From NCBI RefSeq assembly GCF_030068475.1, contig NZ_JAQOSP010000041.1, positions 1 to 64,000 on the forward strand: DNA of 64,000 nucleotides, in the 5' to 3' direction. Positions 12,839-25,517 of the stretch are shown here, in pieces (position 1 is the first letter of the stretch; every line of letters begins with the position of its first letter). The notes beneath the pieces are model-generated. The model had not been told where the DNA came from and did not search any database. It was given only the letters and a program-made list of their open reading frames with translations. A program made the translations under genes and the position numbers. This DNA is from Roseofilum acuticapitatum BLCC-M154. Its GTDB lineage: Bacteria > Cyanobacteriota > Cyanobacteriia > Cyanobacteriales > Desertifilaceae.

Positions 12839-12868
12839 TGCATAATTCTATAAAACTACCCTGATAAT
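12839..12868 (+). promoter_or_regulatory. candidate promoter, shared motif (site 1, sigma-like gene)
   Basis: TGCATAA (12839-12845), 13 bases, CCCT, then GATAAT (12863-12868), that is, a 17-base spacer between a -35-like and a -10-like box. It ends 49 bases before the start of the sigma-like gene. Same spacing as four other sites at 15836, 23331, 24385 and 24913; this site is the weakest in the CC region. Two TTTTGCAGAAA repeats lie just upstream. Confidence 0.55.
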
Positions 12869-12916
12869 TATGTAAGGTTTCAATAACACAGTAAGGATCA
12901 GGGAGATAAATAGACC

Positions 12917-14362
12917 ATGAAATCGCGCAAAGATACTGTTGAATTATTTTCAACATTTCTTCAAATCGATGACCAATATGACCGAATTGGGCCGGGGTGG
13001 CACAAATCACCCCGTTTGGCCAAGTCCATGACTCAGAAGGTGGAGAAAGAGCCAGGAATGCACAAAGAATATTGGGCCCAATACTGGCTCAGAGCATCAA
13101 TGGTAGAAGCTCCAGTTAATCGGCTGGCACGAGAACATCTGGCTGCCTATTTAGAAGAGACCTGTTGTCGGACAGCATGGAAAGTTTCCCAGCAGTATTC
13201 AGAGCGAAAAGTGGATGTTTTCCAGATGGCTAGAATGGTGGTACTAAATCCAGTTAAGCTGTTCAAAAGTTATGATTATAAAAGTAGTGGCGTGAAAACT
13301 TACGCTCAGTTTCCCCTGGAAAGTGCTGTTCGCGAACAACTACGGTGTAACGGTATGGAATTAGACAAATATAGTTGGCCGGCACTGCTACGAAGGATCA
13401 CAAAAAAGAAGCTCAAAGAGGCTTTGTCTAAAGCTGATGTTAAAGAGCCTACTTTTTCTCGTTGTTTGCAAGCTTGGCAATGTTTTCGGGAGCAATATGT
13501 ACCTAGGAAAGCTGATGGGCGTAAACAATTGCAACCCCCGGATCGGCAAGAATTAGACCAGATAGCCTCTCACTATCATCAACGCTATCCTTCTGAGGAC
13601 TTTACCCCCGATGGTGCAATGATTCAAACCTTACTCGATCTAGCAGTTCAAGCGATTCGAGAGAGTTTTAATACCAAGATTGTAGCGCTAGAAGATAGTG
13701 TGTTTGAACCCGCTAGTGTTTCTGAGCCATCCCTAGAAGAGGTAGAAGAGGCAGAAGAAGAAACGGAGCGTTTTAGACAAATTGGTGCAGTTCTTTCTCG
13801 AAAGTTTGATGAATTTGTAGTAGCCGATCGGAGGTTGCTTAAGCTCTGGTATGGCTTGGGGATGACTCAATCAGATTTAGCGCTTATTTTTAGCTTTGAA
13901 CAACAGTATCAAGTGTCTCGTAAAAAAGACAAATTGAAAAAAGTTTTGCTGAAATCTTTAGCTCAATGGAGTCAGGAAACTCTGAAGGTTACGATTACGT
14001 CTAACCAACTGAGCGAGACAGCTAATATTTTGGATATTTGGCTGGAAAAAATCGGTTGCTTTGACTTTTGCGCTCGCCTAAAGCAATCCCTGATGAATCA
14101 AGGCAATTTTGATGAGCTTAAAATCTTGAAGTTACACTTTGGTAAAGGATTGAAGCTTGAGGAGGTTGCCCAGGAAATGGGACGGGGACAAGGGGAGATT
14201 GAGCAGGTGATCGCCGAAATCAAGTCGAGGCTAGAGCAAGAATTATACACTCTAATTGCAACCGAGTTTCAGCTTTCTTTACAAGGGTGCAAATCAGACC
14301 ACAAAGCGATCGCTAATTTTGTCCAGATGTGTCTGTATAAATTGCCTTATGGCTCCCTTTAA
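12917..14362 (+). CDS. sigma-70-like transcription factor
   Basis: A 481-residue protein. Residues about 75-145 resemble sigma region 2 (DVFQMARMVVLNPVKLF, then SYDYKSSGVKTYAQFPLESA). Residues about 309-345 resemble region 4 (LLKLWYGLGMTQSDLALIF followed by a basic helix). A second HTH-like segment lies at about 404-440 (ILKLHFGKGLKLEEVAQEMG). The spacing is wider than in standard sigma factors and a -10 recognition region is not obvious, so it could be a sigma-like regulator. AGGGAG precedes the ATG. DUF1822 follows after 24 bases, so they form one operon. The shared element upstream suggests autoregulation (inference). Confidence 0.72.
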   Translation: MKSRKDTVELFSTFLQIDDQYDRIGPGWHKSPRLAKSMTQKVEKEPGMHKEYWAQYWLRASMVEAPVNRLAREHLAAYLEETCCRTAWKVSQQYSERKVDVFQMARMVVLNPVKLFKSYDYKSSGVKTYAQFPLESAVREQLRCNGMELDKYSWPALLRRITKKKLKEALSKADVKEPTFSRCLQAWQCFREQYVPRKADGRKQLQPPDRQELDQIASHYHQRYPSEDFTPDGAMIQTLLDLAVQAIRESFNTKIVALEDSVFEPASVSEPSLEEVEEAEEETERFRQIGAVLSRKFDEFVVADRRLLKLWYGLGMTQSDLALIFSFEQQYQVSRKKDKLKKVLLKSLAQWSQETLKVTITSNQLSETANILDIWLEKIGCFDFCARLKQSLMNQGNFDELKILKLHFGKGLKLEEVAQEMGRGQGEIEQVIAEIKSRLEQELYTLIATEFQLSLQGCKSDHKAIANFVQMCLYKLPYGSL

Positions 14363-14386
14363 ATAATCAACAGGAGGAATGAGACC

Positions 14387-15814
14387 ATGTTAACGATGAA
14401 TGAATCACTGATGCTCAATTCTAACCAGGTTTTGCTGGAAATTTCACCACAGGACAGGGAAACGGCTTGGCCGCCCGATAATCAATTTGCGACAGAAAAG
14501 GGACAATGGAATGCCTATTTGAACCGCCTCTGTCTCCAGGCGGTTTTGTCTTGGATGGCAGAAGAATCGGGGATTGAACCGCAAATTTACCCCAGTGCAA
14601 GGAATGCGGAAAAATTGTGGGAAGGGATTAATGGAACGGCGATCGCCCTGGAAGAGACTCGCATCGTCATGATTCCCAGTGAAGCCATCGATACTGAGGA
14701 ATTTATTGTCCCTCAAGAATGGGTAGATATTCCAGATTGGAAAGCCAATTATTATCTGGCAGTCCAAGTGTTTCCCGATGATGGCTATGTGCGAATTTGG
14801 GGATATGCCACCCATCAACACTTGAAAACATTAGCCGTCTATGATGCAGGCGATCGCACCTACAGTCTAGATGGAGTGGATGTCATTCAAGACCTGAATG
14901 TGATGTGGGTGGCGAGGGAACTGTGTCCGAATGAACAAGTAGAAGTTGCAGCTTTACCGATTTTATCTGCCCAGGACGCTGAACAGTTGTTAGCGCAACT
15001 GAGTTCGCAAGCCATTCATTACCGCCGATTTGGGCTTCCTTTTCCCCAGTGGGCTGCGTTGTTGACTCAAGGAGCTTGGAGAGAGCAGGTATGGGAAACG
15101 ACTACTACTCTAGAGAGAGTAGAGGCGATCGCCACTGATTCATATCCGCTTGCGGAAACCCTAACCAATTTATCCAATTGGTTGGAAAACCAGATTGAAA
15201 CTCAGTGGCAAACCCTGGAGCAATTTATGGCATACTCAACGGGTAATTTAAGTTTGGCCTTTCGCAATCTAGACATGACCGTAAATCCAGAAGAACGTAT
15301 TCCCATTCTGATTAACCGGATACAAACTAGTGCGGATGAAGGTCAAGTGAAAATTGCGGCCGAAGAGTTAGGCACAATGGGTCAAGGTCATCCGCAAATT
15401 ATTCCCGTTCTGGTCAATTTAATTCAAACGACCGAAGATGAAGAAACCCGTTGGGCCGCAGCCGAAAGTTTATGGACAATTTCCCCAGACCATCCCGGAT
15501 CGGGCGTTCGTAGAATTGCTGATTTAGGAATGCAATTTGGCAATTATCCCCTAGCTTTAATGGTGGCGATTTTACCTAAAAGAGAAGATAATCGGGCGAT
15601 TCTCCTGCGATTAAATCCGATGGGGAACCAGATGTATCTCCCTCCTGGAGTCGAGTTAACGGTGCTGGATGACGAAGGGGAGACGTTCTTGGAAACCGAA
15701 AGCCGAGAGCGTGATAATTATATTCAGCTTAAATTAGGCGGCGATCGCGGCGAACGTTTTAGCGTTAGAGTCGCCCTTGGTGAGACGGCAATCACAGAGG
15801 GATTCGTAATCTAA
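14387..15814 (+). CDS. DUF1822 family protein with HEAT-like repeats
   Basis: This 475-residue protein follows a strong AGGAGG site (14371-14376). The N-terminal two-thirds matches DUF1822, a cyanobacterial family without known function (YYLAVQVFPDDGYVRIWGYA is characteristic). Residues about 305-365 form two HEAT-like repeats (RIPILINRIQ, IAAEELGTMGQG, VLVNLIQTTEDEETRWAAAE), which usually bind other proteins. The C-terminus is a beta-rich domain. It is co-transcribed with the sigma-like gene, so a regulator or sensor that binds the sigma-like protein is a reasonable guess. An interspersed palindrome lies within the coding sequence at 15140-15159. Confidence 0.8.
   Translation: MLTMNESLMLNSNQVLLEISPQDRETAWPPDNQFATEKGQWNAYLNRLCLQAVLSWMAEESGIEPQIYPSARNAEKLWEGINGTAIALEETRIVMIPSEAIDTEEFIVPQEWVDIPDWKANYYLAVQVFPDDGYVRIWGYATHQHLKTLAVYDAGDRTYSLDGVDVIQDLNVMWVARELCPNEQVEVAALPILSAQDAEQLLAQLSSQAIHYRRFGLPFPQWAALLTQGAWREQVWETTTTLERVEAIATDSYPLAETLTNLSNWLENQIETQWQTLEQFMAYSTGNLSLAFRNLDMTVNPEERIPILINRIQTSADEGQVKIAAEELGTMGQGHPQIIPVLVNLIQTTEDEETRWAAAESLWTISPDHPGSGVRRIADLGMQFGNYPLALMVAILPKREDNRAILLRLNPMGNQMYLPPGVELTVLDDEGETFLETESRERDNYIQLKLGGDRGERFSVRVALGETAITEGFVI
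15140..15159. repeat. interspersed TCCGC/GCGGA palindrome inside a coding region, copy 3
   Basis: TCATATCCGCTTGCGGAAAC differs at one base from copies 2 and 4 and is read in frame within the DUF1822 gene, encoding SYPLAE. Confidence 0.7.
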
Positions 15815-15835
15815 AAAGATTCCGATCGGACGGAC

Positions 15836-15865
15836 TGCATAAATTGCTGGAGTCATCCCGATAAG
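15836..15865 (+). promoter_or_regulatory. candidate promoter, shared motif (site 2)
   Basis: TGCATAA (15836-15842), 13 bases, TCCC, GATAAG (15860-15865); ends 33 bases before the next start. It shares the longer stretch CTGGAGTCATCCC with the site at 23331. Confidence 0.6.
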
Positions 15866-15897
15866 TAGATGTAGAGAAAAATTTAGGAGTCACTCCG

Positions 15898-16143
15898 ATG
15901 TCTGCTTCTGAAACTGTGATGCACCAAATGTTTGCGAATCTGGTTGCCGAATATCATCCCTTTGCCAACTACCTCGGTTATCAAGAAGGCGAAAATGGCT
16001 TTATTATCATCTATGATGGCGGCAATGGCCGGCAAGCGATGGTGGTTGATACCCATGGCAATATTGTCCAAGATACGACCTTGGGAACCACCCGCACACT
16101 GGGATTACTGGCCCTAGGGGCTTGGTTATTGGGCGATCGCTAA
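15898..16143 (+). CDS. small conserved-looking protein, function unknown
   Basis: The 81 residues read as a compact alpha/beta protein (HQMFANLVAEYHPFANYLGY, then ENGFIIIYDGG and AMVVDTHGNIVQD), ending in a hydrophobic stretch TLGLLALGAWLLGDR that might associate with a membrane. I do not recognise the family. It starts behind its own copy of the shared promoter element, with TTAGGAG just upstream of the ATG. It lies between the DUF1822 and CHAT genes and ends before a strong hairpin at 16171-16208, so it may be transcribed alone. Confidence 0.72.
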   Translation: MSASETVMHQMFANLVAEYHPFANYLGYQEGENGFIIIYDGGNGRQAMVVDTHGNIVQDTTLGTTRTLGLLALGAWLLGDR

Positions 16144-16170
16144 TCCTGAGCTGTATTCACATTCTGAAAC

Positions 16171-16208
16171 ATTCGCTGACAAGAAAAGTTACATTCTTGT
16201 CAGCGAAT
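16171..16208 (+). terminator. perfect 15-bp stem hairpin
   Basis: Arms ATTCGCTGACAAGAA (16171-16185) and TTCTTGTCAGCGAAT (16194-16208) around an 8-base loop, 27 bases after the small gene. The following T content is modest, so it may be a terminator or an RNA/operator element before the CHAT gene. Confidence 0.6.
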
Positions 16209-16318
16209 TTAGTGTATACTCCGTGACGAGGAAGATAGCGGCTAGATCAATTAAAAATTAAAAATGGGTAAGGTCGAAGATTGTTGACCCGATAGGATAC
16301 TACATTCAGGCCAAGTTT

Positions 16319-19300
16319 ATGACTCAATTAGTCATTCTCAAACTAGGGAGCGGTAGTTTCGCCCAAGGTTTTCCGGTCACGCTCCAGATTGGTAAAGACG
16401 GTTCGATTCCGTCAGTTGAAGTGAGGGGGACATTGCCTCCGGCTCCGAAATTGGGCGATCGCTATACGCAATGGCAAGTTGCCTATCGCGGTTTAGGGCT
16501 ATCAGCGCGACTAGAGAAACCGAAGAAACAAAAGACTCAAGTCTCGCGATCGGGGCTATGTACGGAAGCCGCCCAGCAGCTTAAAGATCACCTCAATCAA
16601 TGGCTCAACTCGGAAGAGTTTCGCCCCATCAAAGAAGCACTGCTGAAAAAATTACAATCCTCAGAAGTCATTCGCTTCATCATTCAAACCCAAGAGCTGC
16701 AACATCAGCAACTACCTTGGCACTTTTGGACACTTTTAGTAGAAGACTACACCAAAGCCGAAATTGCCCTCAGTTCCCCCGAATATCAGGACGTGGAGCG
16801 GATCGAACGTCCGGGAGAGCCGCTCAAAATTTTGGCAATTTTGGGCAATAGTGAAGGCATTGATGTTCAAGCCGATCGCGAATTGCTCCAACAACTTCCA
16901 GGTGCAGAAGTAACCTTTCTCGTGGAGCCAAAGCGCAAAGAACTCACCGATACCTTATGGGCGAAAGGATGGGATATTCTCTGTTTTTCTGGCCATAGCT
17001 CAACGGAGGGCGAGACGGGAAAACTAGCGATTAATCAGACGGATAGTTTAACCGTTGCCGAACTCAAAAATGCCCTCAAAACCTCTATTGCCCAAGGATT
17101 GCGCTTGGCCATTTTCAACTCTTGTGATGGCTTGGGATTAGCTCGAAATCTAGCAGATTTGCATATTCCCCAAGTCATCGTCATGCGCGAACCCGTGCCC
17201 GATGTGGTGGCTCAGGAATTTCTCAAATATTTCCTCAAAGCCTTTGCCAGAGGTCAATCCCTGTACTTATCCGTCAGAGAAGCCAGGGAGAGATTACAAG
17301 GCATTGAAGATCAATTTCCTTGCGCCACTTGGTTACCCGTCATCTATCAAAACCCGGCAACTCTTCCTCCCACTTGGGAAGACTTGGGGGGAATTTGTGC
17401 CGATATTGGCTCGGAAAAAATCCTCGCTTGTCCCTATCGGGGATTATCCGCTTTTCGGGAAGAAGATGCGCCCTATTTCTTTGGTCGAGAAACCTTTACC
17501 GAACAGTTAATTCAGGCAGTTCACGAGAAGCCCTTCGTGGCCGTCATTGGGGCATCCGGTAGCGGTAAATCTTCTGTGGTGTTTGCCGGTTTAATTCCTC
17601 AATGGCGCTCAGATAATCATATCATTCTCAGCATCCGTCCTGGAGACCAGCCCTTTGTCAGCCTTGCAACCGCTCTCATCCCCCACCTAGACCCCCAACT
17701 AAGCGAAACTGACCAACTCATTGAAGCCAAAAAATTAGCCAGCGCCTTATCTTCTCAAGCCATATCACTGCGAGAAGTGATTGAACGGATTTTATCAAGA
17801 TCTACTCATACAACGGGGATCTTGTTAGTGATTGACCAATTTGAAGAACTGTATACTTTAGGTAAGAATCTTCAAGAGCGACAGCAGTGGTTAGAGAGTT
17901 GGTTAAGCGCCATCAAAGTCATTGCTCAACTGAAAGTGGTCATCACTTTACGCGCCGACTTTTTCACCCAAGCCATCGACGACCGACCCTTAACCGATGC
18001 TCTGCAAAATGCCGATGTCAAACTCGGCCCCATGAACCGGGAGGAGTTGGAGCGAACCATTACCCAACCCGCAGCTAAGGCGGGAATGTTGATTGAGCCA
18101 GGGTTAACGGATCGCATTTTGGAGGCCGTGCAGGCAGAACCGGGAAATCTACCCCTGCTCGAATTTGCCCTCACTTTACTCTGGGAACACCCCCGAAATG
18201 GCCGTTTGAATCATGCGGCTTATAAGGAGATTGGCGGCGTAGAATTGGCTTTAACTCGCTATGCTCAGGAGGTTTACGACCGACTTGATGGGACTGAGCA
18301 AGAAATTGCCAAACGGATTTTTCTGGAGTTAACCCAGTTGGGAGAAGGATCGCAAGAAACGCGCCGCCAGGTCTCGAAGCAAGAGTTACAGCGAATTGCC
18401 CCCTTTCCTTCTGTGTCGGGTACAGAAGAGCTAGTGGAGTCGGTGATTCAGAAATTAGCGGCGGCTAAGTTGGTGGTGACTAGCGAAACCTCGGTGGATA
18501 TTGTCCATGAAGCTCTAATTCGCCACTGGCCGCTGTTGCGGGAGTGGTTGGAGGAAAACCGAGAGCAACTGCTGCGTCAGCGAGCCATTGAGGGAGCTGC
18601 GAAAGAGTGGCAAAAGCAGGGAGAACCGGAGGAGTTAAGTTATCTGCTCCAGGGGGTGAAGTTAGCGGACGCGGAGAGTCTGCTGGACTCGGAGGGGATT
18701 GCCCTGTCGAGTTTAGCTAGGGATTATATTATCATCAGCCAGGCTGTGCGCGATCGCCTCCTGCAAGAAGAAGAAGACAGACGCGAGCGGGAGTTACAGC
18801 AGGAGCGCAAAGCCAGAATTGCCGCCCAGAGAACGACCCTCGCGGCAGTTGCATCGTTTTTTATTATACTGGTGGCTGGGGGATTTTCCTGGTGGCAGCG
18901 ACAGCAGTCCCTTCGCATTCTTCAGGATGTTTCGGCGGGTATCGAGGTGGGGACACCGCAACTGTTATCGCTGTTGCCGGATTTTTTCAAGATTGCCAAC
19001 CAACAGAAGCGTAGGGGAGAGATTGACCGCGCTCTGGCCTATTACCGCACAACTTTAACCGAGTCCAAGCAGTTACTCCAGCCTGCCGAAAATGAAGCGA
19101 TTCAACTCAGTGCTGCCGAGCAAGAGCAGTTAGAAAACCTGGTTCTGGACACTGAACAAGCCTTAGTCGAGACGATTGAAACCCATCGCCTACCGGAACT
19201 GGAGGCACAACTGAGTCAGGGGGAAATCGGCCAATTGCTCGATGAGACTTCTTTACTCGATTATGAGGAGCAATATACGGAGGGAGCGCTAAAAACCACT

Positions 19301-19609
19301 TACGCTATCCTCCTGCGGGAATGGGGAACTAAAGCGGATTTGAATGACAATGGGGAGCTGCAAACTCCAGAAGAAGCCGAGTATCTCCCTTGTGAGCTAT
19401 TAAAGGCGATCGATGCTCTTTGGCGCAAGCATAGTGGCGATCGCTGCGGTTGGTTTGCTCAAGATTCTGCCTATCAATCTGCCGAATGTGAAGAGTTAGA
19501 TGAATTAACCCTAACCCAGAAAATATTCCTCGTTCCTCCCTTTGATGCGGCCATTAATCGCCTGAATAGCTGTGATGTTACCCATGCTCCTGTCTCTCTC
19601 AACCCTTAA
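16319..19609 (+). CDS. CHAT protease - STAND NTPase protein with TM segment and EF-hand
   Basis: 1096 residues. The CHAT (caspase-like) peptidase domain, about 165-340, has catalytic His226 in FSGHSS and Cys269 in FNSCDG. The STAND NTPase, about 370-690, begins CPYRGLSAFREEDAPYFFGR, with Walker A GASGSGKSS (Lys417) and Walker B ILLVIDQFEELY. A coiled, charged segment precedes a membrane helix at about 840-860, which would keep the CHAT and NTPase parts on one side and the last 230 residues on the other. The C-terminus has a canonical EF-hand loop at 1007-1018 (DLNDNGELQTPE). CHAT-STAND proteins are typically signal-activated proteases in conflict or cell-death pathways; the target here is unknown. 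Confidence 0.9.
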   Translation: MTQLVILKLGSGSFAQGFPVTLQIGKDGSIPSVEVRGTLPPAPKLGDRYTQWQVAYRGLGLSARLEKPKKQKTQVSRSGLCTEAAQQLKDHLNQWLNSEEFRPIKEALLKKLQSSEVIRFIIQTQELQHQQLPWHFWTLLVEDYTKAEIALSSPEYQDVERIERPGEPLKILAILGNSEGIDVQADRELLQQLPGAEVTFLVEPKRKELTDTLWAKGWDILCFSGHSSTEGETGKLAINQTDSLTVAELKNALKTSIAQGLRLAIFNSCDGLGLARNLADLHIPQVIVMREPVPDVVAQEFLKYFLKAFARGQSLYLSVREARERLQGIEDQFPCATWLPVIYQNPATLPPTWEDLGGICADIGSEKILACPYRGLSAFREEDAPYFFGRETFTEQLIQAVHEKPFVAVIGASGSGKSSVVFAGLIPQWRSDNHIILSIRPGDQPFVSLATALIPHLDPQLSETDQLIEAKKLASALSSQAISLREVIERILSRSTHTTGILLVIDQFEELYTLGKNLQERQQWLESWLSAIKVIAQLKVVITLRADFFTQAIDDRPLTDALQNADVKLGPMNREELERTITQPAAKAGMLIEPGLTDRILEAVQAEPGNLPLLEFALTLLWEHPRNGRLNHAAYKEIGGVELALTRYAQEVYDRLDGTEQEIAKRIFLELTQLGEGSQETRRQVSKQELQRIAPFPSVSGTEELVESVIQKLAAAKLVVTSETSVDIVHEALIRHWPLLREWLEENREQLLRQRAIEGAAKEWQKQGEPEELSYLLQGVKLADAESLLDSEGIALSSLARDYIIISQAVRDRLLQEEEDRRERELQQERKARIAAQRTTLAAVASFFIILVAGGFSWWQRQQSLRILQDVSAGIEVGTPQLLSLLPDFFKIANQQKRRGEIDRALAYYRTTLTESKQLLQPAENEAIQLSAAEQEQLENLVLDTEQALVETIETHRLPELEAQLSQGEIGQLLDETSLLDYEEQYTEGALKTTYAILLREWGTKADLNDNGELQTPEEAEYLPCELLKAIDALWRKHSGDRCGWFAQDSAYQSAECEELDELTLTQKIFLVPPFDAAINRLNSCDVTHAPVSLNP

Positions 19610-19627
19610 TTCAACCCTCAAAGAACC

Positions 19628-20920
19628 ATGATTAACCTACTCCATACCATCAGGAAAACGAAGAAAATTCTATTCGCTCTGGTGAGTCTTCTGACCTTAA
19701 CCTTGATTCTGATAACCAGCCTTCCCAGTCACGGACTCATCCCCGATTTTGCCTACATCGTCAAATTCCAAGGCAGTCGCCTAACCCTAGGTGCAGGAAA
19801 CAGCCGAAATCGACAACCCGTTCAATTACAAGACCGCCTCGAATCGAATCGTATTCTCTATGTTCCCGGCGATAATCAACATTGGGCAAACCTCGCATTT
19901 ATCACCAATTCCCCTATAGATTCAACTGGATTAATGGTTACAGCCGGCCCCCATCGTAGTGCCACCCAATGGAGTTTTCCTTGTACAGCCAGAGGCCATT
20001 TTACGATTGGTTGGCAACGGGGAGGCGATAGGGGATGTGAACCCGGTATTCGAGTGCAATCAAGTGGTTCTGCAACCAGTCAATTATTGACACGAAAAGC
20101 GTTAACCGCTCAAAGCACAAATGAAGTTGTTGTTGTTCCCACTCCAGGAGAAAGTTTACTGCAAACTTCAGATAGTTCTACCGGAGTTGTGGTTGATGTT
20201 TTAATTGGAGACGTGCAAGTTCAGTCAGACAGATATCCCCAAGGCAGACTGATTAGAGCAGGACAAAGATATGCTTATCCAGAAGATACCGTAACTCCCA
20301 TAGATTCCAATGCCATTCTCAATTCTCCAGAACTGCGAAACTTCCGCAATCCCAATAACTGGACATCACCGGATTTACCAGATAGAGCAGCCAGTAGTAT
20401 TGTTTCCCAGTTAACTGAATTGGAAACAGCTTTGCGTCAATTACCACAGCAAACAGCGAGTCAATCTACACCAACTCAAGCAAGTAATCAACCTCAAACA
20501 ACAACTCAATCGGCATTGGGGAATCAGTGGGCTCTAATGTACGATGTATTTGTTTCCAGCCAACTTACAAATGATTGCCATCAAGCGGGGGGTCTAGCAG
20601 CATTAACTTTAATTAACTCTTCTCTAACGGGCTACACGGGGTCGCTTTCAATACCCAATAAAACATGGACATTAAATGAACCGTCAATTCACTCAGATCA
20701 AATAAATGGCTCTATCAATGGAGACCAAGTACAATTAAGGTTTACAGACACCATGGATTATCCCTATTATTCTATTGATTATATACTCAATGGTTCAATT
20801 AATAACCAAGGTTTTTTTGAGGGAACTGGTAGAGTATCAGGGGGGGGGTGTGAGGGACGAACTTTCTATTTTAGATTAATGAAAAAAGAGCAAGTTGTAG
20901 AGTATCTACAGCGATCCTAA
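19628..20920 (+). CDS. exported protein, paralogue 1 of tandem pair
   Basis: 430 residues, beginning 18 bases after the CHAT gene and so probably in its operon. A basic N-terminus and hydrophobic helix (about 14-35) form a signal peptide or anchor. The next 240 residues are nearly the same as in the gene at 20985: VKFQGSRLTLGAG, GDNQHWANLAF, AGPHR, QWSFPCTARG, PTPGESL and VDVLIGDVQVQSD, the last resembling a FecR-type fold. After a Gln/Thr-rich linker comes a different C-terminal beta module starting LGNQWALMYD. I do not recognise the whole protein. Confidence 0.78.
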   Translation: MINLLHTIRKTKKILFALVSLLTLTLILITSLPSHGLIPDFAYIVKFQGSRLTLGAGNSRNRQPVQLQDRLESNRILYVPGDNQHWANLAFITNSPIDSTGLMVTAGPHRSATQWSFPCTARGHFTIGWQRGGDRGCEPGIRVQSSGSATSQLLTRKALTAQSTNEVVVVPTPGESLLQTSDSSTGVVVDVLIGDVQVQSDRYPQGRLIRAGQRYAYPEDTVTPIDSNAILNSPELRNFRNPNNWTSPDLPDRAASSIVSQLTELETALRQLPQQTASQSTPTQASNQPQTTTQSALGNQWALMYDVFVSSQLTNDCHQAGGLAALTLINSSLTGYTGSLSIPNKTWTLNEPSIHSDQINGSINGDQVQLRFTDTMDYPYYSIDYILNGSINNQGFFEGTGRVSGGGCEGRTFYFRLMKKEQVVEYLQRS

Positions 20921-20984
20921 AATTTACTATGCTATAAACTAAAAGACTCAAAAAATAGTACGTCAACACTAATTTGAACTTAGC

Positions 20985-22484
20985 ATGATGATCAATAGAC
21001 TTTATATTCTACGCAGAGTTAAGCGATTACTCTTCGCTTTTGTCAGTCTCCTGACCTTAACCTTGATTCTCCTAACCAGTCTTCCCAGTCAAGGACTCAT
21101 CCCTGATGCTGCCTACATCGTTAAATTCCAAGGCAGCCGTCTAACCCTAGGTGCAGGAACCAGCCGCAACCGCCAACCTGTCCAACTGCAAGACCGCCTC
21201 GAATCGAATCGTATTCTCTATATTCCCGGCGATAATCAACATTGGGCCAACCTCGCATTTGCAGTCGATTCTCCTAAAGATCATACCGGATTAGTTGTCA
21301 GAGCCGGCCCCCATCGTACTGCATCACAGTGGAGCTTTCCTTGTACTGCCAGAGGCCGTTTTACCATTGCTTGGCAACGAGGAAGAAATCGGGGATGTGA
21401 GGAAGGAATTCGAGTACAATCAAGTGGCTCTGCAACCAGTCAATTGTTAACACGAAAAGCCTTAACCGCTCAAGGCAGAAATGAAGTTGTTGTTATCCCC
21501 ACTCCAGGAGAAAGCTTGATTCAAACTGCCGATAGTCCTACTGGAATTTTGGTTGATGTTTTAATTGGGGAAGTGAACGTTCAGTCAGACCGATATCCCC
21601 AAGGCAGACTGATTCGAGCAGGACAAAGATATGCTTATCCAGAAGATACCGTAACGCCCATAGATTCTAATGCGATTCTCAATTCTCCAGAACTGCGAGA
21701 TTTTGTAAACCCTGATAACTGGTCACCAGACCTTTTCGATCGCTTTGCTAATGGTATTGTTGCACAGTTGACTGAATTGGAAACCGCCATCAGATCGAAT
21801 CCTCCAACCCTGGCTTCACCCCCTCCAAGTCGTCAACCCAATACTCAACCTACAGCATCAACCACTGGAACTGATTTAAATGGTGATTGGCGATTTGATT
21901 TTGGTTGGTTTACTTATTCATCGCAGGAAGGATGTACATCTGTTTCTCCAGGAACGTATACCGGTCTCATGACTATTAGTCAAAATGGCAACCAACTGAG
22001 TATGTCACCTGATGGGCCAGTTCCAATGGATGATGGAACTTTATCAGGCAATCAATTTCAAGCTAGAGGAGGAACTCCCATGCGATGGGTAGGCACAGTC
22101 AGTAGTGATGGTAATGAAATTAGTGGAGATGGAATTTGTGATAGTTTTACTATGCCTTTTAAGTTGACACGCTTACCTGAAAATAATATTCCTGATGGGG
22201 CGATCGATATTTCAGGAAAATGGGTTTTAGTGATTTTAGGTGGGAGCAATATAAGAGCTGTAGATACCATCGTTCAAACAGGCAATGAATTCCAATTACT
22301 CTCAGGAATTTCGGGTCGTTCTATCAAAGGAGAAATTGAAAATAATGAAATCCTAATTTATTTTACCAATACTCCAGAGCGCGGAAGAATAAGTGCCGAT
22401 CTCAACCGAATAGAATTTCCAGACCAAATTATGATCCGTTTGGGTTCACCAGGCTGTTCAGACTCCCAAAGTTGTCAAATATAG
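20985..22484 (+). CDS. exported protein, paralogue 2 of tandem pair
   Basis: 499 residues. The N-terminal ~275 residues closely repeat the preceding gene, including the signal segment, QWSFPCTARG and RLIRAGQRYAYPEDTV. The proline/threonine linker leads to two beta-rich modules, each opening with G-x-W (LNGDWRFDFG and ISGKWVLVIL), unlike the single module of paralogue 1. Several cysteines in the C-terminal part fit an extracytoplasmic location. Function unknown; a sensor head with interchangeable tails is an inference from the pattern of conservation. Confidence 0.78.
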   Translation: MMINRLYILRRVKRLLFAFVSLLTLTLILLTSLPSQGLIPDAAYIVKFQGSRLTLGAGTSRNRQPVQLQDRLESNRILYIPGDNQHWANLAFAVDSPKDHTGLVVRAGPHRTASQWSFPCTARGRFTIAWQRGRNRGCEEGIRVQSSGSATSQLLTRKALTAQGRNEVVVIPTPGESLIQTADSPTGILVDVLIGEVNVQSDRYPQGRLIRAGQRYAYPEDTVTPIDSNAILNSPELRDFVNPDNWSPDLFDRFANGIVAQLTELETAIRSNPPTLASPPPSRQPNTQPTASTTGTDLNGDWRFDFGWFTYSSQEGCTSVSPGTYTGLMTISQNGNQLSMSPDGPVPMDDGTLSGNQFQARGGTPMRWVGTVSSDGNEISGDGICDSFTMPFKLTRLPENNIPDGAIDISGKWVLVILGGSNIRAVDTIVQTGNEFQLLSGISGRSIKGEIENNEILIYFTNTPERGRISADLNRIEFPDQIMIRLGSPGCSDSQSCQI

Positions 22485-22494
22485 AATTAAAAAT

Positions 22495-23103
22495 ATGCCC
22501 TACAGCCAGTTCACCACCATCACCAAAGTCAAAGAAGCCTTCAGCCTCACCACAGTAGAAGGGGTGCGCTTTTTTCCAGACCTCCCACCCATTGAACCGA
22601 GTCAAACCCTTTCAGAAACCCTGAGCGAAACCCTTCCCCTAGCGGTAGCAACGGGTAGTGAAAAAGCCCGTTCCGAGTTAATCATTAGTCCCCTTTTAGT
22701 CGAAGTGCGCCGTATTCTTAAGCGTCAAATTAGTCTATTTTCTGGGGAAGAATTTAATGTTGATGAATCTTTAGGACTCAATGGGCGCTGTGACTTTCTG
22801 ATTAGTCACTCTAGGGAACAATTGGCCATTGAAGCCCCAGCGATTCTGATTGTAGAAGCCAAACAAGCGGATCTGAAAACCGGAATTGGTCAATGTTTGG
22901 CGGAAATGGTCGCTGCCCAACAATTTAATCACAGTAAACAAAACCCTTTACCGACAATCTATGGTTCAGTAACCAATGGCTTCCAATGGCAGTTTTTAAA
23001 GCTGGCAGGTACTGAAGTAACAATTGATCTCAATCTTTATCCTCTGCCCCCCGTGGAGACGATTTTAGGGATGTTCATTTGGATGGTAAATGAAGGGAAT
23101 TGA
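22495..23103 (+). CDS. PD-(D/E)XK nuclease-like protein
   Basis: A 202-residue protein with a restriction-endonuclease-like pattern: Glu61 in SELIISPLL, Asp100 in NGRCDFLIS, Glu121-Ala-Lys123 in ILIVEAK, and Gln133. This is the usual E...D...ExK...Q arrangement. Similar cyanobacterial proteins resemble the N-terminus of type I restriction R subunits, but no helicase or methylase is nearby. Whether it cuts DNA is not shown. It begins 10 bases after paralogue 2. A truncated copy of its own first 51 codons follows at 23144. Confidence 0.75.
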   Translation: MPYSQFTTITKVKEAFSLTTVEGVRFFPDLPPIEPSQTLSETLSETLPLAVATGSEKARSELIISPLLVEVRRILKRQISLFSGEEFNVDESLGLNGRCDFLISHSREQLAIEAPAILIVEAKQADLKTGIGQCLAEMVAAQQFNHSKQNPLPTIYGSVTNGFQWQFLKLAGTEVTIDLNLYPLPPVETILGMFIWMVNEGN

Positions 23104-23143
23104 TCTCAAATCCGTTACCCATTGTTAATTGTTAATTGACATT

Positions 23144-23299
23144 ATGCCCTACAGCCAGTTCACCACTATTACTAAAGTGAAGGAAGCGTTCAGCCTAACC
23201 ACAGTGGAAGGGGTGCGTTTTCTGCCGGACATTGAGCCAGTGTCCCCCAGTCCCATTTTACAGGGTCTGTTGGAAACCAATATTCCTTGGGCGATCTAG
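23144..23299 (+). pseudogene. truncated duplicate of the nuclease-like gene
   Basis: The 51-codon frame starts MPYSQFTTITKVKEAFSLTT and VEGVRF, identical in protein to the start of the gene at 22495. It then diverges and stops at 23299, before any catalytic residue. It starts after a TTAATTG heptamer repeat and ends just upstream of the promoter element at 23331. A tandem partial duplication is the simplest explanation. Confidence 0.8.
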
Positions 23300-23330
23300 T
23301 TCAGTAAAGATCTGATTTTCCTCAGTCCGT

Positions 23331-23360
23331 TGCATAAAACCCTGGAGTCATCCCAACAAA
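23331..23360 (+). promoter_or_regulatory. candidate promoter, shared motif (site 3)
   Basis: TGCATAA (23331-23337), 13 bases ending CTGGAGTCA, TCCC, AACAAA (23355-23360). It lies 93 bases before the lipoprotein start. Confidence 0.55.
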
Positions 23361-23452
23361 TTAATAGCAAGGGAAAAGCTACTCATTGACCTCTGTTGTA
23401 GCCAATACCTTGCTGCTGAAACAAGATTGTGCAACATTCTGAGGAAATCACC

Positions 23453-24133
23453 ATGAAATTCGCCACCCAACTTCCCCAAGCTCTCGTTAAAGTTAGTTTA
23501 GCGGCTGCTGTTCTTTTACTCGCCAATGGCTGCTATCAACCAGAATCCCTTACTCCAGAAACCTCAGAACCAACTCCCTCCATAGAAACGCCTTCAGAAA
23601 CCCCCAATCCAGAACCTGCGGCTTCTCCATCATCCATACCTTCTGAGGAGAACGTATCTATTGACGTGCAAACCCAAAACCCTCCAGTTATTCCCTCTGT
23701 TCCAGACTCTAATTCCACTCAACCCATTCCCAATTCTCCCTTACCTCCTTCAACTTATCGGCCTCCTCAGATAGATTCTAGCAGTCCACTCGATGGAATT
23801 TGGAAATTGCAATATAGCGTTCATGGAATCATTTATCAAAGTGTCTTAAAGATGGAAGGCAATCAAGGAAAAATGCTCACTCGTTTCTTTAATGTCAATG
23901 CGGGACAACCCGAAGAAGTCGAACAAACCTTAAAGATTGAACCTTCTGCTCACGGACTCCTATTACTCGGTTCTAACCCCGTTTATCCAGGGACAAATAC
24001 TCCCTATCCGACGTACAGTGCTGATAATTTTCTGTTTACTGTCAATCCAGATGGTTCACGATTTGCCTATACTTGTGATACAGCTAATCGATGTTCTCCC
24101 GTAGAAATGGAGTATGTGGGAGCGAGTTTTTAA
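23453..24133 (+). CDS. lipoprotein with beta-rich C-terminal domain
   Basis: The ATG at 23453, behind GAGGAA, gives 226 residues; an upstream GTG at 23429 lacks such a site. The signal peptide ends in a lipobox LLLANGC, so the Cys is lipidated and the protein anchored outside the cytoplasmic membrane. A Pro/Ser/Glu-rich spacer of about 90 residues leads to a module starting LDGIWKLQYSVHG, with the same G-x-W opening as the tails of the two exported paralogues upstream, and two cysteines near the end. Function unknown. It is preceded by the shared promoter element. Confidence 0.82.
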   Translation: MKFATQLPQALVKVSLAAAVLLLANGCYQPESLTPETSEPTPSIETPSETPNPEPAASPSSIPSEENVSIDVQTQNPPVIPSVPDSNSTQPIPNSPLPPSTYRPPQIDSSSPLDGIWKLQYSVHGIIYQSVLKMEGNQGKMLTRFFNVNAGQPEEVEQTLKIEPSAHGLLLLGSNPVYPGTNTPYPTYSADNFLFTVNPDGSRFAYTCDTANRCSPVEMEYVGASF

Positions 24134-24176
24134 TTGTAGTCGATTCGATTAAGATTGATACAATTATGATTGGTCT

Positions 24177-24211
24177 ATTGTAGGGGCGGGTTTGAAACCC
24201 GCCCCTACAAT
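24177..24211. repeat. perfect 17-bp palindrome with 1-base loop
   Basis: ATTGTAGGGGCGGGTTT (24177-24193), G, then its exact complement (24195-24211). A degenerate relative (ACCCGCCCCTACAA) recurs at about 24347-24360. This type of GGGGCGGGTTT palindrome is a common dispersed element in cyanobacteria. It lies in the 316-bp gap after the lipoprotein gene, which otherwise holds only promoter site 4. Confidence 0.85.
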
Positions 24212-24384
24212 GTTTCATTGTTAATCAAATTAACTTATTTATTAGATTAAATCCTTAAATAGTTGCTACTGTCTGTGTACTGTAGAGACATGGTGGGTTC
24301 GTGCGGGTTTAGAAAAATAGTTGTCAGTCTACAAGATTTGCGTATAACCCGCCCCTACAAATTTTATATAGGCCAGAGTCGGAG

Positions 24385-24414
24385 TGCATAAATCTAGATT
24401 TCTCTCCCAATAGA
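24385..24414 (+). promoter_or_regulatory. candidate promoter, shared motif (site 4)
   Basis: TGCATAA (24385-24391), 13 bases, TCCC, AATAGA (24409-24414), ending 36 bases before the membrane-protein start. Confidence 0.55.
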
Positions 24415-24449
24415 TAAGCACAAGAACAAATCAAGTTGAGGGAAACACC

Positions 24450-24806
24450 ATGAATCCTACTGGAGACAACAAAAACAAAATTGAAACTATCCATGCAGAA
24501 CTGGAAGCCCAAAAGTTAACCCAAATGGTTAAACTCTCTGAGAAGAGTTTGTGGGCTACGATTGCTCTGGGTATTGTTTTTCCTATCGGAGGATATATTT
24601 ATACTAGGCGCTGGCTGTCGGGTTTGGGATTTATGCTCGGAGGTATGGGTTTGGCGATCGCCGTTTACGCGGTCGAGCCAGACCAGTACAGAGCCGATCC
24701 CATGGCGTTCACATTATGCTCGCTTTACGGTGCGATCGTTTCCCCCCTCGATAATAGTCGTGCGATTTCCCGCGCTCGTGAACGAGTCAGCGATCTATCG
24801 GAGTAG
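24450..24806 (+). CDS. small membrane protein, function unknown
   Basis: 118 residues with a charged N-terminal helix, then two hydrophobic segments (about 34-52, ALGIVFPIGGYIYT, and 58-75, GFMLGGMGLAIAVYAV) and a basic C-terminal tail. The layout resembles TM2-like or small two-helix membrane proteins. GAGGGAAAC precedes the ATG. It has its own copy of the shared promoter element and is followed by a clear terminator, so it is probably transcribed alone. Confidence 0.75.
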   Translation: MNPTGDNKNKIETIHAELEAQKLTQMVKLSEKSLWATIALGIVFPIGGYIYTRRWLSGLGFMLGGMGLAIAVYAVEPDQYRADPMAFTLCSLYGAIVSPLDNSRAISRARERVSDLSE

Positions 24807-24839
24807 ATCTGGCTCAATCTGAATAGCCTATCCTACGGT

Positions 24840-24876
24840 AAACCCCCAGTTCTTAACCAACTGGGGGTTTTCTTTA
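24840..24876 (+). terminator. rho-independent terminator
   Basis: The stem AAACCCCCAGTT (24840-24851) pairs with AACTGGGGGTTT (24859-24870), followed by TTCTTT. It ends the membrane-protein transcript. Confidence 0.88.
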
Positions 24877-24912
24877 ACGCTACAAATTGCCAAAACAGCT
24901 TTTGGGTTGATC

Positions 24913-24942
24913 TGCATAATTTCTTGAACCTTTCCCTATAAG
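24913..24942 (+). promoter_or_regulatory. candidate promoter, shared motif (site 5)
   Basis: TGCATAA (24913-24919), 13 bases, TCCC, TATAAG (24937-24942), 66 bases before the secreted-protein start. Confidence 0.6.
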
Positions 24943-25007
24943 AGTACAGAAGCTAATCAAGCTTCAGGTTCAAATTCACTCTACTCGTTCATTCCAGGAG
25001 CAACGTT

Positions 25008-25517
25008 ATGAATTCTTTTATCACCTCTTCTCTGCAATCTGTTTACCAAGCTACTACCAACTTTATGAAACCTAAAGCTACAGTTAAAACCGCGATCGCC
25101 CTCTTTTCTGGTCTGCTAGTTGCTGCTCCTACCGCCGCGTTTGCGAACCGCTATACGGATGTCGTCTACCAACAGTTAATGGATGCTGCTATTGGTTTGG
25201 GTATTTTAAGTAACTATCAAGTGGTTGATACTCCTTATGTAAATACCTTAGATGATAATCGCTCAGAAACGATCTCCGTCACCCTTTATTCTGGCCACTC
25301 CTATGCTCTACTGGGAGTGTGCGATCAAGATTGCCGAGATCTAGACCTGTATCTCTACGATGGCTATGGGAACTTAGTTGATTCTGATACCAGCAGAGAT
25401 GATTATCCCATCGTTGAGGTGTCACCTAGCCGGAGCGGTCGTTTCTATGTTAAAACTTCGATGGCCAGTTGTTCAGCGTCTTACTGCTATTATGGCGTGG
25501 GTCTGTTTGGGAGATGA
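25008..25517 (+). CDS. secreted protein, PPC-like beta domain
   Basis: 169 residues. A signal peptide (KTAIALFSGLLVAAPTAAFA) is preceded by a longer than usual N-terminal extension. The mature part has a jelly-roll pattern like the bacterial pre-peptidase C-terminal domain: SETISVTLYSGHSYALLGVC, DLDLYLYDGYGNLVDSD, and SGRFYVKTSM. Two closely spaced Cys pairs (CDQDC, CSASYC) suggest disulfides outside the cell. No catalytic domain is attached. It lies behind the shared promoter element, with CAGGAGCAACG as ribosome binding site, and before a bidirectional hairpin. Confidence 0.78.
   Translation: MNSFITSSLQSVYQATTNFMKPKATVKTAIALFSGLLVAAPTAAFANRYTDVVYQQLMDAAIGLGILSNYQVVDTPYVNTLDDNRSETISVTLYSGHSYALLGVCDQDCRDLDLYLYDGYGNLVDSDTSRDDYPIVEVSPSRSGRFYVKTSMASCSASYCYYGVGLFGR

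What the first reader, a model, noticed from the sequence alone, without database searches (positions are those of the whole stretch)
12839..25517. Candidate self-regulated CHAT-protease/STAND system with sigma-like factor, DUF1822 and exported output
In 12.7 kb all genes point the same way: sigma-like, DUF1822/HEAT, small protein, CHAT-STAND-TM-EF-hand, two exported paralogues, PD-(D/E)XK protein, lipoprotein, membrane protein, secreted protein. Known: CHAT-STAND proteins are proteases activated by oligomerisation, and sigma factors are often released by cleavage of an inhibitor. Inference: DUF1822 may hold the sigma-like factor, the CHAT protease may release it on an envelope or calcium signal, and the shared promoters would then drive surface proteins. 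As a whole unit this is not a system I know as described.
Basis: inference. Interest (0 to 1): 0.75.

Follow-up and report, generated by a model that had tools for sequence, protein, structure and literature searches.

The report
Protease-linked sigma-factor switch in cyanobacteria
A cyanobacterial gene set pairs a gene-switching sigma factor with a probable holder protein (DUF1822) and a sensor protease, and a shared promoter sequence ties this switch to its own gene, to protease genes and to exported proteins, so a mostly unstudied bacterial signalling route becomes testable.

Summary
In detail: ten same-strand genes at 12917-25517, with five copies of a two-box promoter motif (TGCATAA-N13/14-CCC) before five transcription units (0.34 expected). 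The core, sigma factor - DUF1822 - CHAT protease, is conserved across cyanobacteria: a sigma gene lies directly before DUF1822 in 74 of 82 and 79 of 85 cases. It is already in print in one sentence (PMC8195603). The rest of the 12.7 kb is lineage-specific. New here is the promoter link. TGCATAA is the most enriched 7-mer before the sigma genes. In 77 independent loci I found 35 two-box sites (3.75 expected), 34 intergenic and 15 before the sigma gene itself. In the same genome a second sigma of this family shares a sister promoter with an unlinked gene for the same kind of CHAT protease, plus two subtilases and a CAP-RTX protein. DUF1822 co-diverges with both sigma and CHAT; sigma and CHAT do so only weakly. 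Most likely DUF1822 is an anti-sigma factor that the CHAT protease inactivates, as Csx29 does to Csx30. Binding and cleavage remain inferred. The 'EF-hand' lies in a GUN4-like domain with four invariant cysteines.

The parts
12839..12866 (+). two-box promoter motif before the sigma gene (TGCATAA-N13-CCCTGATA)
12917..14362 (+). sigma factor, long class, 481 aa; sigma-70 family match 76-347, second region-4-like HTH 400-433
   Evidence: model residues 19-357 match sigma subunits domain-wise
14387..15814 (+). DUF1822 protein, 475 aa: N-terminal alpha/beta part, low-confidence linker about 249-298, HEAT repeats about 300-366, Ig-like sandwich about 374-474; proposed anti-sigma factor
15836..15863 (+). 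two-box promoter motif before the 81-aa gene and the CHAT operon
15898..16143 (+). 81-aa orphan protein
   Evidence: no relative
16319..19609 (+). sensor protease, 1096 aa: constant N-terminal domain, CHAT with H226/C269, nSTAND1, one TM, GUN4-like Cys-rich tail with an EF-like loop
19628..20920 (+). exported protein EXP1, 430 aa
   Evidence: EXP genes also follow the CHAT-STAND gene in L008, L096, L097, L098
20985..22484 (+). exported paralogue EXP2, 499 aa
22495..23103 (+). PD-(D/E)XK protein; probably a passenger
23331..23358 (+). two-box promoter motif before the lipoprotein gene
23429..24133 (+). lipoprotein (LANGC lipobox, read by eye)
24176..24212 (+). strong terminator-like hairpin
24385..24412 (+). 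two-box promoter motif before the membrane protein gene
24450..24806 (+). small membrane protein, 118 aa
24913..24940 (+). two-box promoter motif before the secreted protein gene
25008..25517 (+). secreted PPC-like protein; a 43% identical paralogue at C86 has the same motif

Best explanation
This is a protease-gated sigma switch. The sigma factor recognises TGCATAA (-35) and CCCNATA (-10) promoters, including its own. DUF1822 holds it inactive. The CHAT protease, with a swappable sensor half (here nSTAND1 plus a membrane segment and a Cys-rich GUN4-like tail), fires on an envelope signal and inactivates DUF1822, probably by a cut in its disordered linker. Freed sigma then transcribes its own operon, the CHAT operon and genes for exported proteins. 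Shown: gene order, promoter motif and its link to sigma genes, co-divergence. Inferred: sigma-DUF1822 binding, cleavage, nature of the signal.
For: Five motif copies against 0.34 expected. TGCATAA is the top 7-mer before sigma genes: 18 of 65 against 17 of 659 other genes, p 2e-11. Two-box motif before sigma genes in 12 of 121 against 12 of 1267 others, shuffles 0.10. In 77 loci chosen by DUF1822 similarity alone: 35 sites in 26 loci, 34 intergenic, shuffles 3.75, reversed pattern 1; 15 of 35 precede the sigma gene itself (by eye). Own genome: 8 sister promoters against 1 control, all with GCATAAAA at one spacing, before a sigma gene and an unlinked EACC2-CHAT-type gene. Sigma directly before DUF1822 in 74 of 82 and 79 of 85. 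Distance correlations over 92 triplets: sigma-DUF1822 0.78, DUF1822-CHAT 0.51, sigma-CHAT 0.24. H226 and C269 nearly invariant in 45 CHATs. Precedent: Csx29 cleaves Csx30, which inhibits an ECF-like sigma that binds motifs in its own locus (PMC10028731, passages).
Against: No direct evidence that DUF1822 binds sigma or is cut: the linked model has pTM 0.61 and its interface could not be read. In the replication set TGCATAA alone, within 150 nt, is only weakly enriched before sigma (9 of 58 against 16 of 241, p 0.03) and is not the top 7-mer. Most sigma genes lack a strict two-box match. Exported-product enrichment among neighbours is weak (6 of 12 against 344 of 1255, p 0.08). Per-genome co-occurrence of sigma and strict motif is modest (6 of 14 against 6 of 82, p 0.002; same order only, p 0.02) and may reflect genome size. 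CHAT is missing after DUF1822 in about a third of loci.
Confidence: 0.48

Rival explanations
1. Immune or cell-death system: the caspase-like protein self-activates on infection and the sigma factor switches on suicide or defence genes, as proposed for EACC2 systems in general.
For: PMC8195603 places EACC2-caspase genes with an ECF sigma factor and DUF1822 among conflict systems. nSTAND1 and PD-(D/E)XK domains occur in the window.
Against: The commonest sensor half in 45 CHATs is CHASE2 (25), with periplasmic-binding domains in 5; the downstream gene is DUF928 in 19 of 37. Motif-linked genes include subtilases, CAP-RTX, PPC-like and lipoproteins rather than nucleases.
Confidence: 0.2
2. The TGCATAA motif is the site of another regulator or of a housekeeping sigma with an activator; the sigma gene is only one of its targets.
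For: No transcript start sites are known. A sigma with two HTH parts and a motif with three blocks leave room for another factor.
Against: The motif precedes sigma genes in many genera, and its second box differs with sigma class in the same genome (CCCNATA for the long class, CTGAGAACCCTATAG for the short).
Confidence: 0.2
3. Only the sigma-DUF1822-CHAT core is a unit; the other genes were gathered by chance and share a common cyanobacterial promoter type.
For: The 81-aa, lipoprotein, membrane and PPC-like genes have no relative in the other loci. An early scan of 29 genomes gave 108 motif matches against 45 in the reversed control, a modest excess.
Against: Five motif copies fall on exactly five transcription units. 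EXP genes follow the CHAT-STAND gene in 4 other genomes. A PPC paralogue elsewhere in the genome carries the motif too.
Confidence: 0.12

Closest known systems
EACC2-caspase neighbourhoods with ECF sigma factor and DUF1822 (PMC8195603, 2021)
   Same: Same triad: constant N-terminal domain plus caspase-like (CHAT) protein with a variable C-terminal half, next to a sigma factor and DUF1822
   Different: In the passages seen that paper gives one sentence, calls DUF1822 a TPR protein and names no promoters or regulon; here the sigma is tied by motif to itself, CHAT and exported genes, and the sensor half is nSTAND1-TM-GUN4-like
Craspase: Csx29 (TPR-CHAT) / Csx30 / CASP-sigma of type III-E CRISPR (PMC10028731)
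   Same: CHAT protease, a sigma-holding protein and an ECF-like sigma, with motifs in its own locus
   Different: No Cas7-11 among the ten genes scanned; sensing by membrane or STAND domains instead of guide RNA; no detected similarity of DUF1822 to Csx30 (inconclusive)
CalpL / CalpT / CalpS (PMC11417357, PMC12751052; search listings and start of abstracts only, roles otherwise recalled)
   Same: Protease releases a sigma factor from an inhibitor
   Different: Lon-type protease activated by cyclic oligoadenylate in CRISPR systems

Membership tests
[quoted passage not shown]
   CHAT in 45 of 45 and a conserved ~170-aa N-terminal part; no EACC2 model was available to name that part
EACC2-caspase/sigma/DUF1822 neighbourhood (PMC8195603) | adjacent sigma factor and DUF1822 genes | tested here: met
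   sigma directly before DUF1822 in 74 of 82 and 79 of 85; a CHAT or STAND gene within two genes downstream in 53 of 82, a CHAT gene in 57 of 85
EACC2-caspase/sigma/DUF1822 neighbourhood (PMC8195603) | variable C-terminal sensor half | tested here: met
   CHASE2 25, nSTAND1 6, periplasmic-binding 5 of 45
sigma-70 family | curated sigma-70 model above cut-off | tested here: met
   TIGR02937 60.3 bits against 42.9
CHAT peptidase | Pfam CHAT above cut-off and His/Cys dyad | tested here: met
   51 against 24 bits; H226 and C269 nearly invariant
Craspase (type III-E) | Cas7-11 guide-RNA effector gene | tested here: not met
   PADLOC scan of the ten genes shows none
Craspase (type III-E) | anti-sigma protein cleaved by the CHAT protease | not testable with these tools
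   needs purified proteins
GUN4 | Pfam GUN4 above cut-off | tested here: inconclusive
   27.6 against 29.2 bits
EF-hand | D-x-N/D-x-N/D-G loop kept in relatives | tested here: inconclusive
   kept in 4 of 5; no Pfam EF-hand match

The most novel reading that the evidence does not exclude
Cyanobacteria use a widespread, multi-copy class of one-step signalling systems in which a sensor-CHAT protease destroys a DUF1822 anti-sigma factor and frees a dedicated sigma with its own promoter code (TGCATAA plus a class-specific -10), controlling secreted proteases, adhesins and peptides: a CRISPR-free relative in logic of Craspase.
Probability: 0.4. Interest if true: 0.8.

Novelty: new variant of a known kind. 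Interest (0 to 1): 0.63.

Why it matters
If true, the many CHAT-sensor proteins of unknown function in cyanobacteria gain a role and a readout: each has a partner sigma and a promoter motif that can be found by sequence alone. It would place caspase-like proteases in ordinary envelope signalling, not only in death or CRISPR immunity, and make the sigma-DUF1822-CHAT hypothesis testable with one reporter.

Tried and rejected
Generic sigma-70 promoter and terminator scan: no excess. Rfam: nothing. Natural sigma-DUF1822 fusions: the 646-655-aa DUF1822 frames (L100, L101, L102) are STAND-like proteins with an N-terminal HTH-like part and a DUF1822 tail, not sigma fusions (read by eye). A motif before DUF1822 in G095 lies in the 3' end of the upstream gene and is not counted. 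PDB sequence searches with sigma, DUF1822 and CHAT gave no useful match. Foldseek on the linked model: none at E 0.001. Model of DUF1822 alone: HEAT and Ig-like parts only; the N-terminal part was barely tested, and no Csx30 match was listed. The pair model could not be read for contacts, because no coordinates are given. Papers: DUF1822 in 2 papers, EACC2 in one relevant paper, TGCATAA with sigma/cyanobacteria gave no motif paper among the 12 listed. That the promoter link is not in print rests on these searches of open papers only. Rows dropped: three duplicate loci (L279, L282, L317); L030, L035, L107, L109, L110 and short fragments; sequences sharing 20- or 25-mers.
Full report
OBSERVATION. 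The ten genes are there, on one strand, from 12917 to 25517. Family scans give: a sigma-70 family protein (TIGR02937 60.3 bits, cut-off 42.9) with a further region-4-like match at residues 400-433 just below the Pfam cut-off; DUF1822 with HEAT repeats; an 81-aa protein without family; a 1096-aa protein with CHAT, nSTAND1 and a GUN4-like tail (27.6 bits, cut-off 29.2); and a PD-(D/E)XK protein. In five related tails the loop is kept in four, and four cysteines are invariant, which fits a domain outside the cytoplasm (inference).

PROMOTERS. The two-box motif TGCATAA-N13/14-CCC occurs five times in the window, always on the + strand, 62-98 nt before a start codon of this cluster; shuffled windows give 0.34 on average and never more than 2. 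The five sites precede the sigma gene, the 81-aa/CHAT operon, the lipoprotein, the membrane protein and the secreted protein. In the whole genome the short pattern has 28 matches; most of the others lie inside genes or before no clear start. One extra match, at C86, precedes a 150-aa exported protein 43% identical to the window's secreted protein.

CONSERVATION OF THE CORE. I took DUF1822 neighbourhoods from the genome and its relatives. Of 82 DUF1822 hits, 74 have a sigma gene directly before them on the same strand, and 53 have a CHAT or STAND gene within two genes after. In 80 named loci from a second collection the numbers are 79 and 57 of 85. All 45 CHAT proteins tested have a Pfam CHAT domain; 25 carry CHASE2, 6 nSTAND1, 5 a periplasmic-binding domain. 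The next gene is DUF928 in 19 of 37. Sigma proteins come in a short class (about 220 aa) and a long one (about 400-600 aa); DUF1822 length follows sigma length (rho 0.74, n 74), while CHAT length does not follow DUF1822 length (rho -0.03, n 53). Over 92 complete triplets, protein distances correlate 0.78 for sigma-DUF1822, 0.51 for DUF1822-CHAT and 0.24 for sigma-CHAT. This is what one expects if DUF1822 is the piece in contact with both, but it does not prove contact; shared descent of neighbours adds to it.

WHAT IS SPECIAL HERE. The same combination, sigma - DUF1822 - CHAT/nSTAND1/tail - exported EXP genes, occurs in four other genomes (L008, L096, L097, L098), among 291 genomes searched, of which 6 (own included) have an EXP match. 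The 81-aa, lipoprotein, membrane and PPC-like genes of the window were not found in the other loci.

PROMOTER LINK ACROSS GENOMES. In an unbiased count of 7-mers in the 150 nt before sigma genes against other genes of the same loci, TGCATAA is first (18 of 65 against 17 of 659, p 2e-11; next best 3e-5). Genes other than sigma that carry it in those loci are often exported proteins (by eye). In the named set the 7-mer alone is weaker (9 of 58 against 16 of 241, p 0.03), partly because start codons are uncertain and leaders long: several sites lie 185-315 nt upstream. The two-box motif does better: 12 of 121 sigma genes against 12 of 1267 others, 0.10 expected by shuffling. Over the 77 non-duplicate named loci there are 35 distinct sites in 26 loci, 34 of them intergenic although ORFs cover 83% of the DNA; shuffles give 3.75, the reversed pattern 1. 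In the 80 discovery loci, which hold many short-class sigmas with another second box, the same count is 13 against 5.55. By eye, 15 of the 35 precede the sigma gene, 3 Sec-type exported proteins, 4 peptides with a double-glycine leader, 3 kinases, 4 other proteins, and 6 remain unassigned. Against this: the first relatives scan shows only a modest excess (108 against 45 in 29 genomes), and the per-genome overlap of sigma and strict motif is 6 of 14 against 6 of 82 (p 0.002; p 0.02 within the order), which genome size may confound.

A SECOND CASE IN THE SAME GENOME. The genome has three DUF1822 genes, each behind a sigma gene. The short sigma at C81 has a promoter with CTGAGAACCCTATAGAGG. This string, with up to 2 mismatches, occurs 8 times in the genome (control 1), and all eight carry GCATAAAA at the same distance upstream (read by eye). 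The genes behind them are the C81 sigma itself; an unlinked CHAT gene at C87 whose product is 50% identical over 362 residues to the window's CHAT protein; two very large subtilases with DUF4114; a CAP-RTX protein; a glycosyltransferase; a DUF1997/kinase operon; and a 72-aa protein. Here gene order cannot explain the tie between sigma and protease. No TGCATAA box was seen before the third sigma, at C70.

STRUCTURE. A model of sigma and DUF1822 read as one chain reached pLDDT 80.6 and pTM 0.61. Residues 19-357 align, domain by domain (Z 7-9, rmsd about 26), to sigma subunits of RNA polymerase complexes. DUF1822 alone has a confident N-terminal half, a disordered linker near 249-298, HEAT repeats and an Ig-like sandwich. 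Contacts between the two could not be read.

MECHANISM. The best reading is a protease-gated sigma switch in the manner of Csx29-Csx30-CASP-sigma, where the sigma also binds motifs in its own locus (PMC10028731, passages). Sigma-promoter link: well supported by comparison. DUF1822 as anti-sigma: likely. Cleavage by CHAT and the nature of the signal: inferred.

WHAT IS KNOWN. [quoted passage not shown] No promoter, regulon or anti-sigma role was found in the papers searched.

Noticed in passing
window 23144-23300: Decayed partial copy of the start of the PD-(D/E)XK gene (MPYSQFTTITKVKEAFSLTTVEGVRF), lying just after the intact gene.
   Followed up: partly
L100, L101, L102 (7.4-9.8 kb): DUF1822 C-terminal part fused to a STAND-like NTPase with an HTH-like N-terminus; these loci lack the sigma gene, so the DUF1822 tail also pairs with another likely DNA-binding protein.
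   Followed up: partly
L285, L295, L299 (minus strand, 8.0-11 kb): Small peptides with double-glycine leaders downstream of TGCATAA two-box sites; they may be secreted peptides of the same regulon.
   Followed up: no
alignment A1 (69 sigma proteins): NCBIfam model for the type III-E CRISPR sigma factor (NF041236) matches 5 of 69 of these sigma factors, best E 3.2e-8.
   Followed up: no
window 24180-24360: A GGGGCGGGTTTGAAACCCGCCCC hairpin with a partial second copy (AACCCGCCCCTACAAA) near 24346, like a mobile intergenic repeat.
   Followed up: no
L195 (G010 C148): Three near-identical TGCATAA promoters within 700 nt upstream of a sigma-DUF1822-CHAT locus on the other strand.
   Followed up: no
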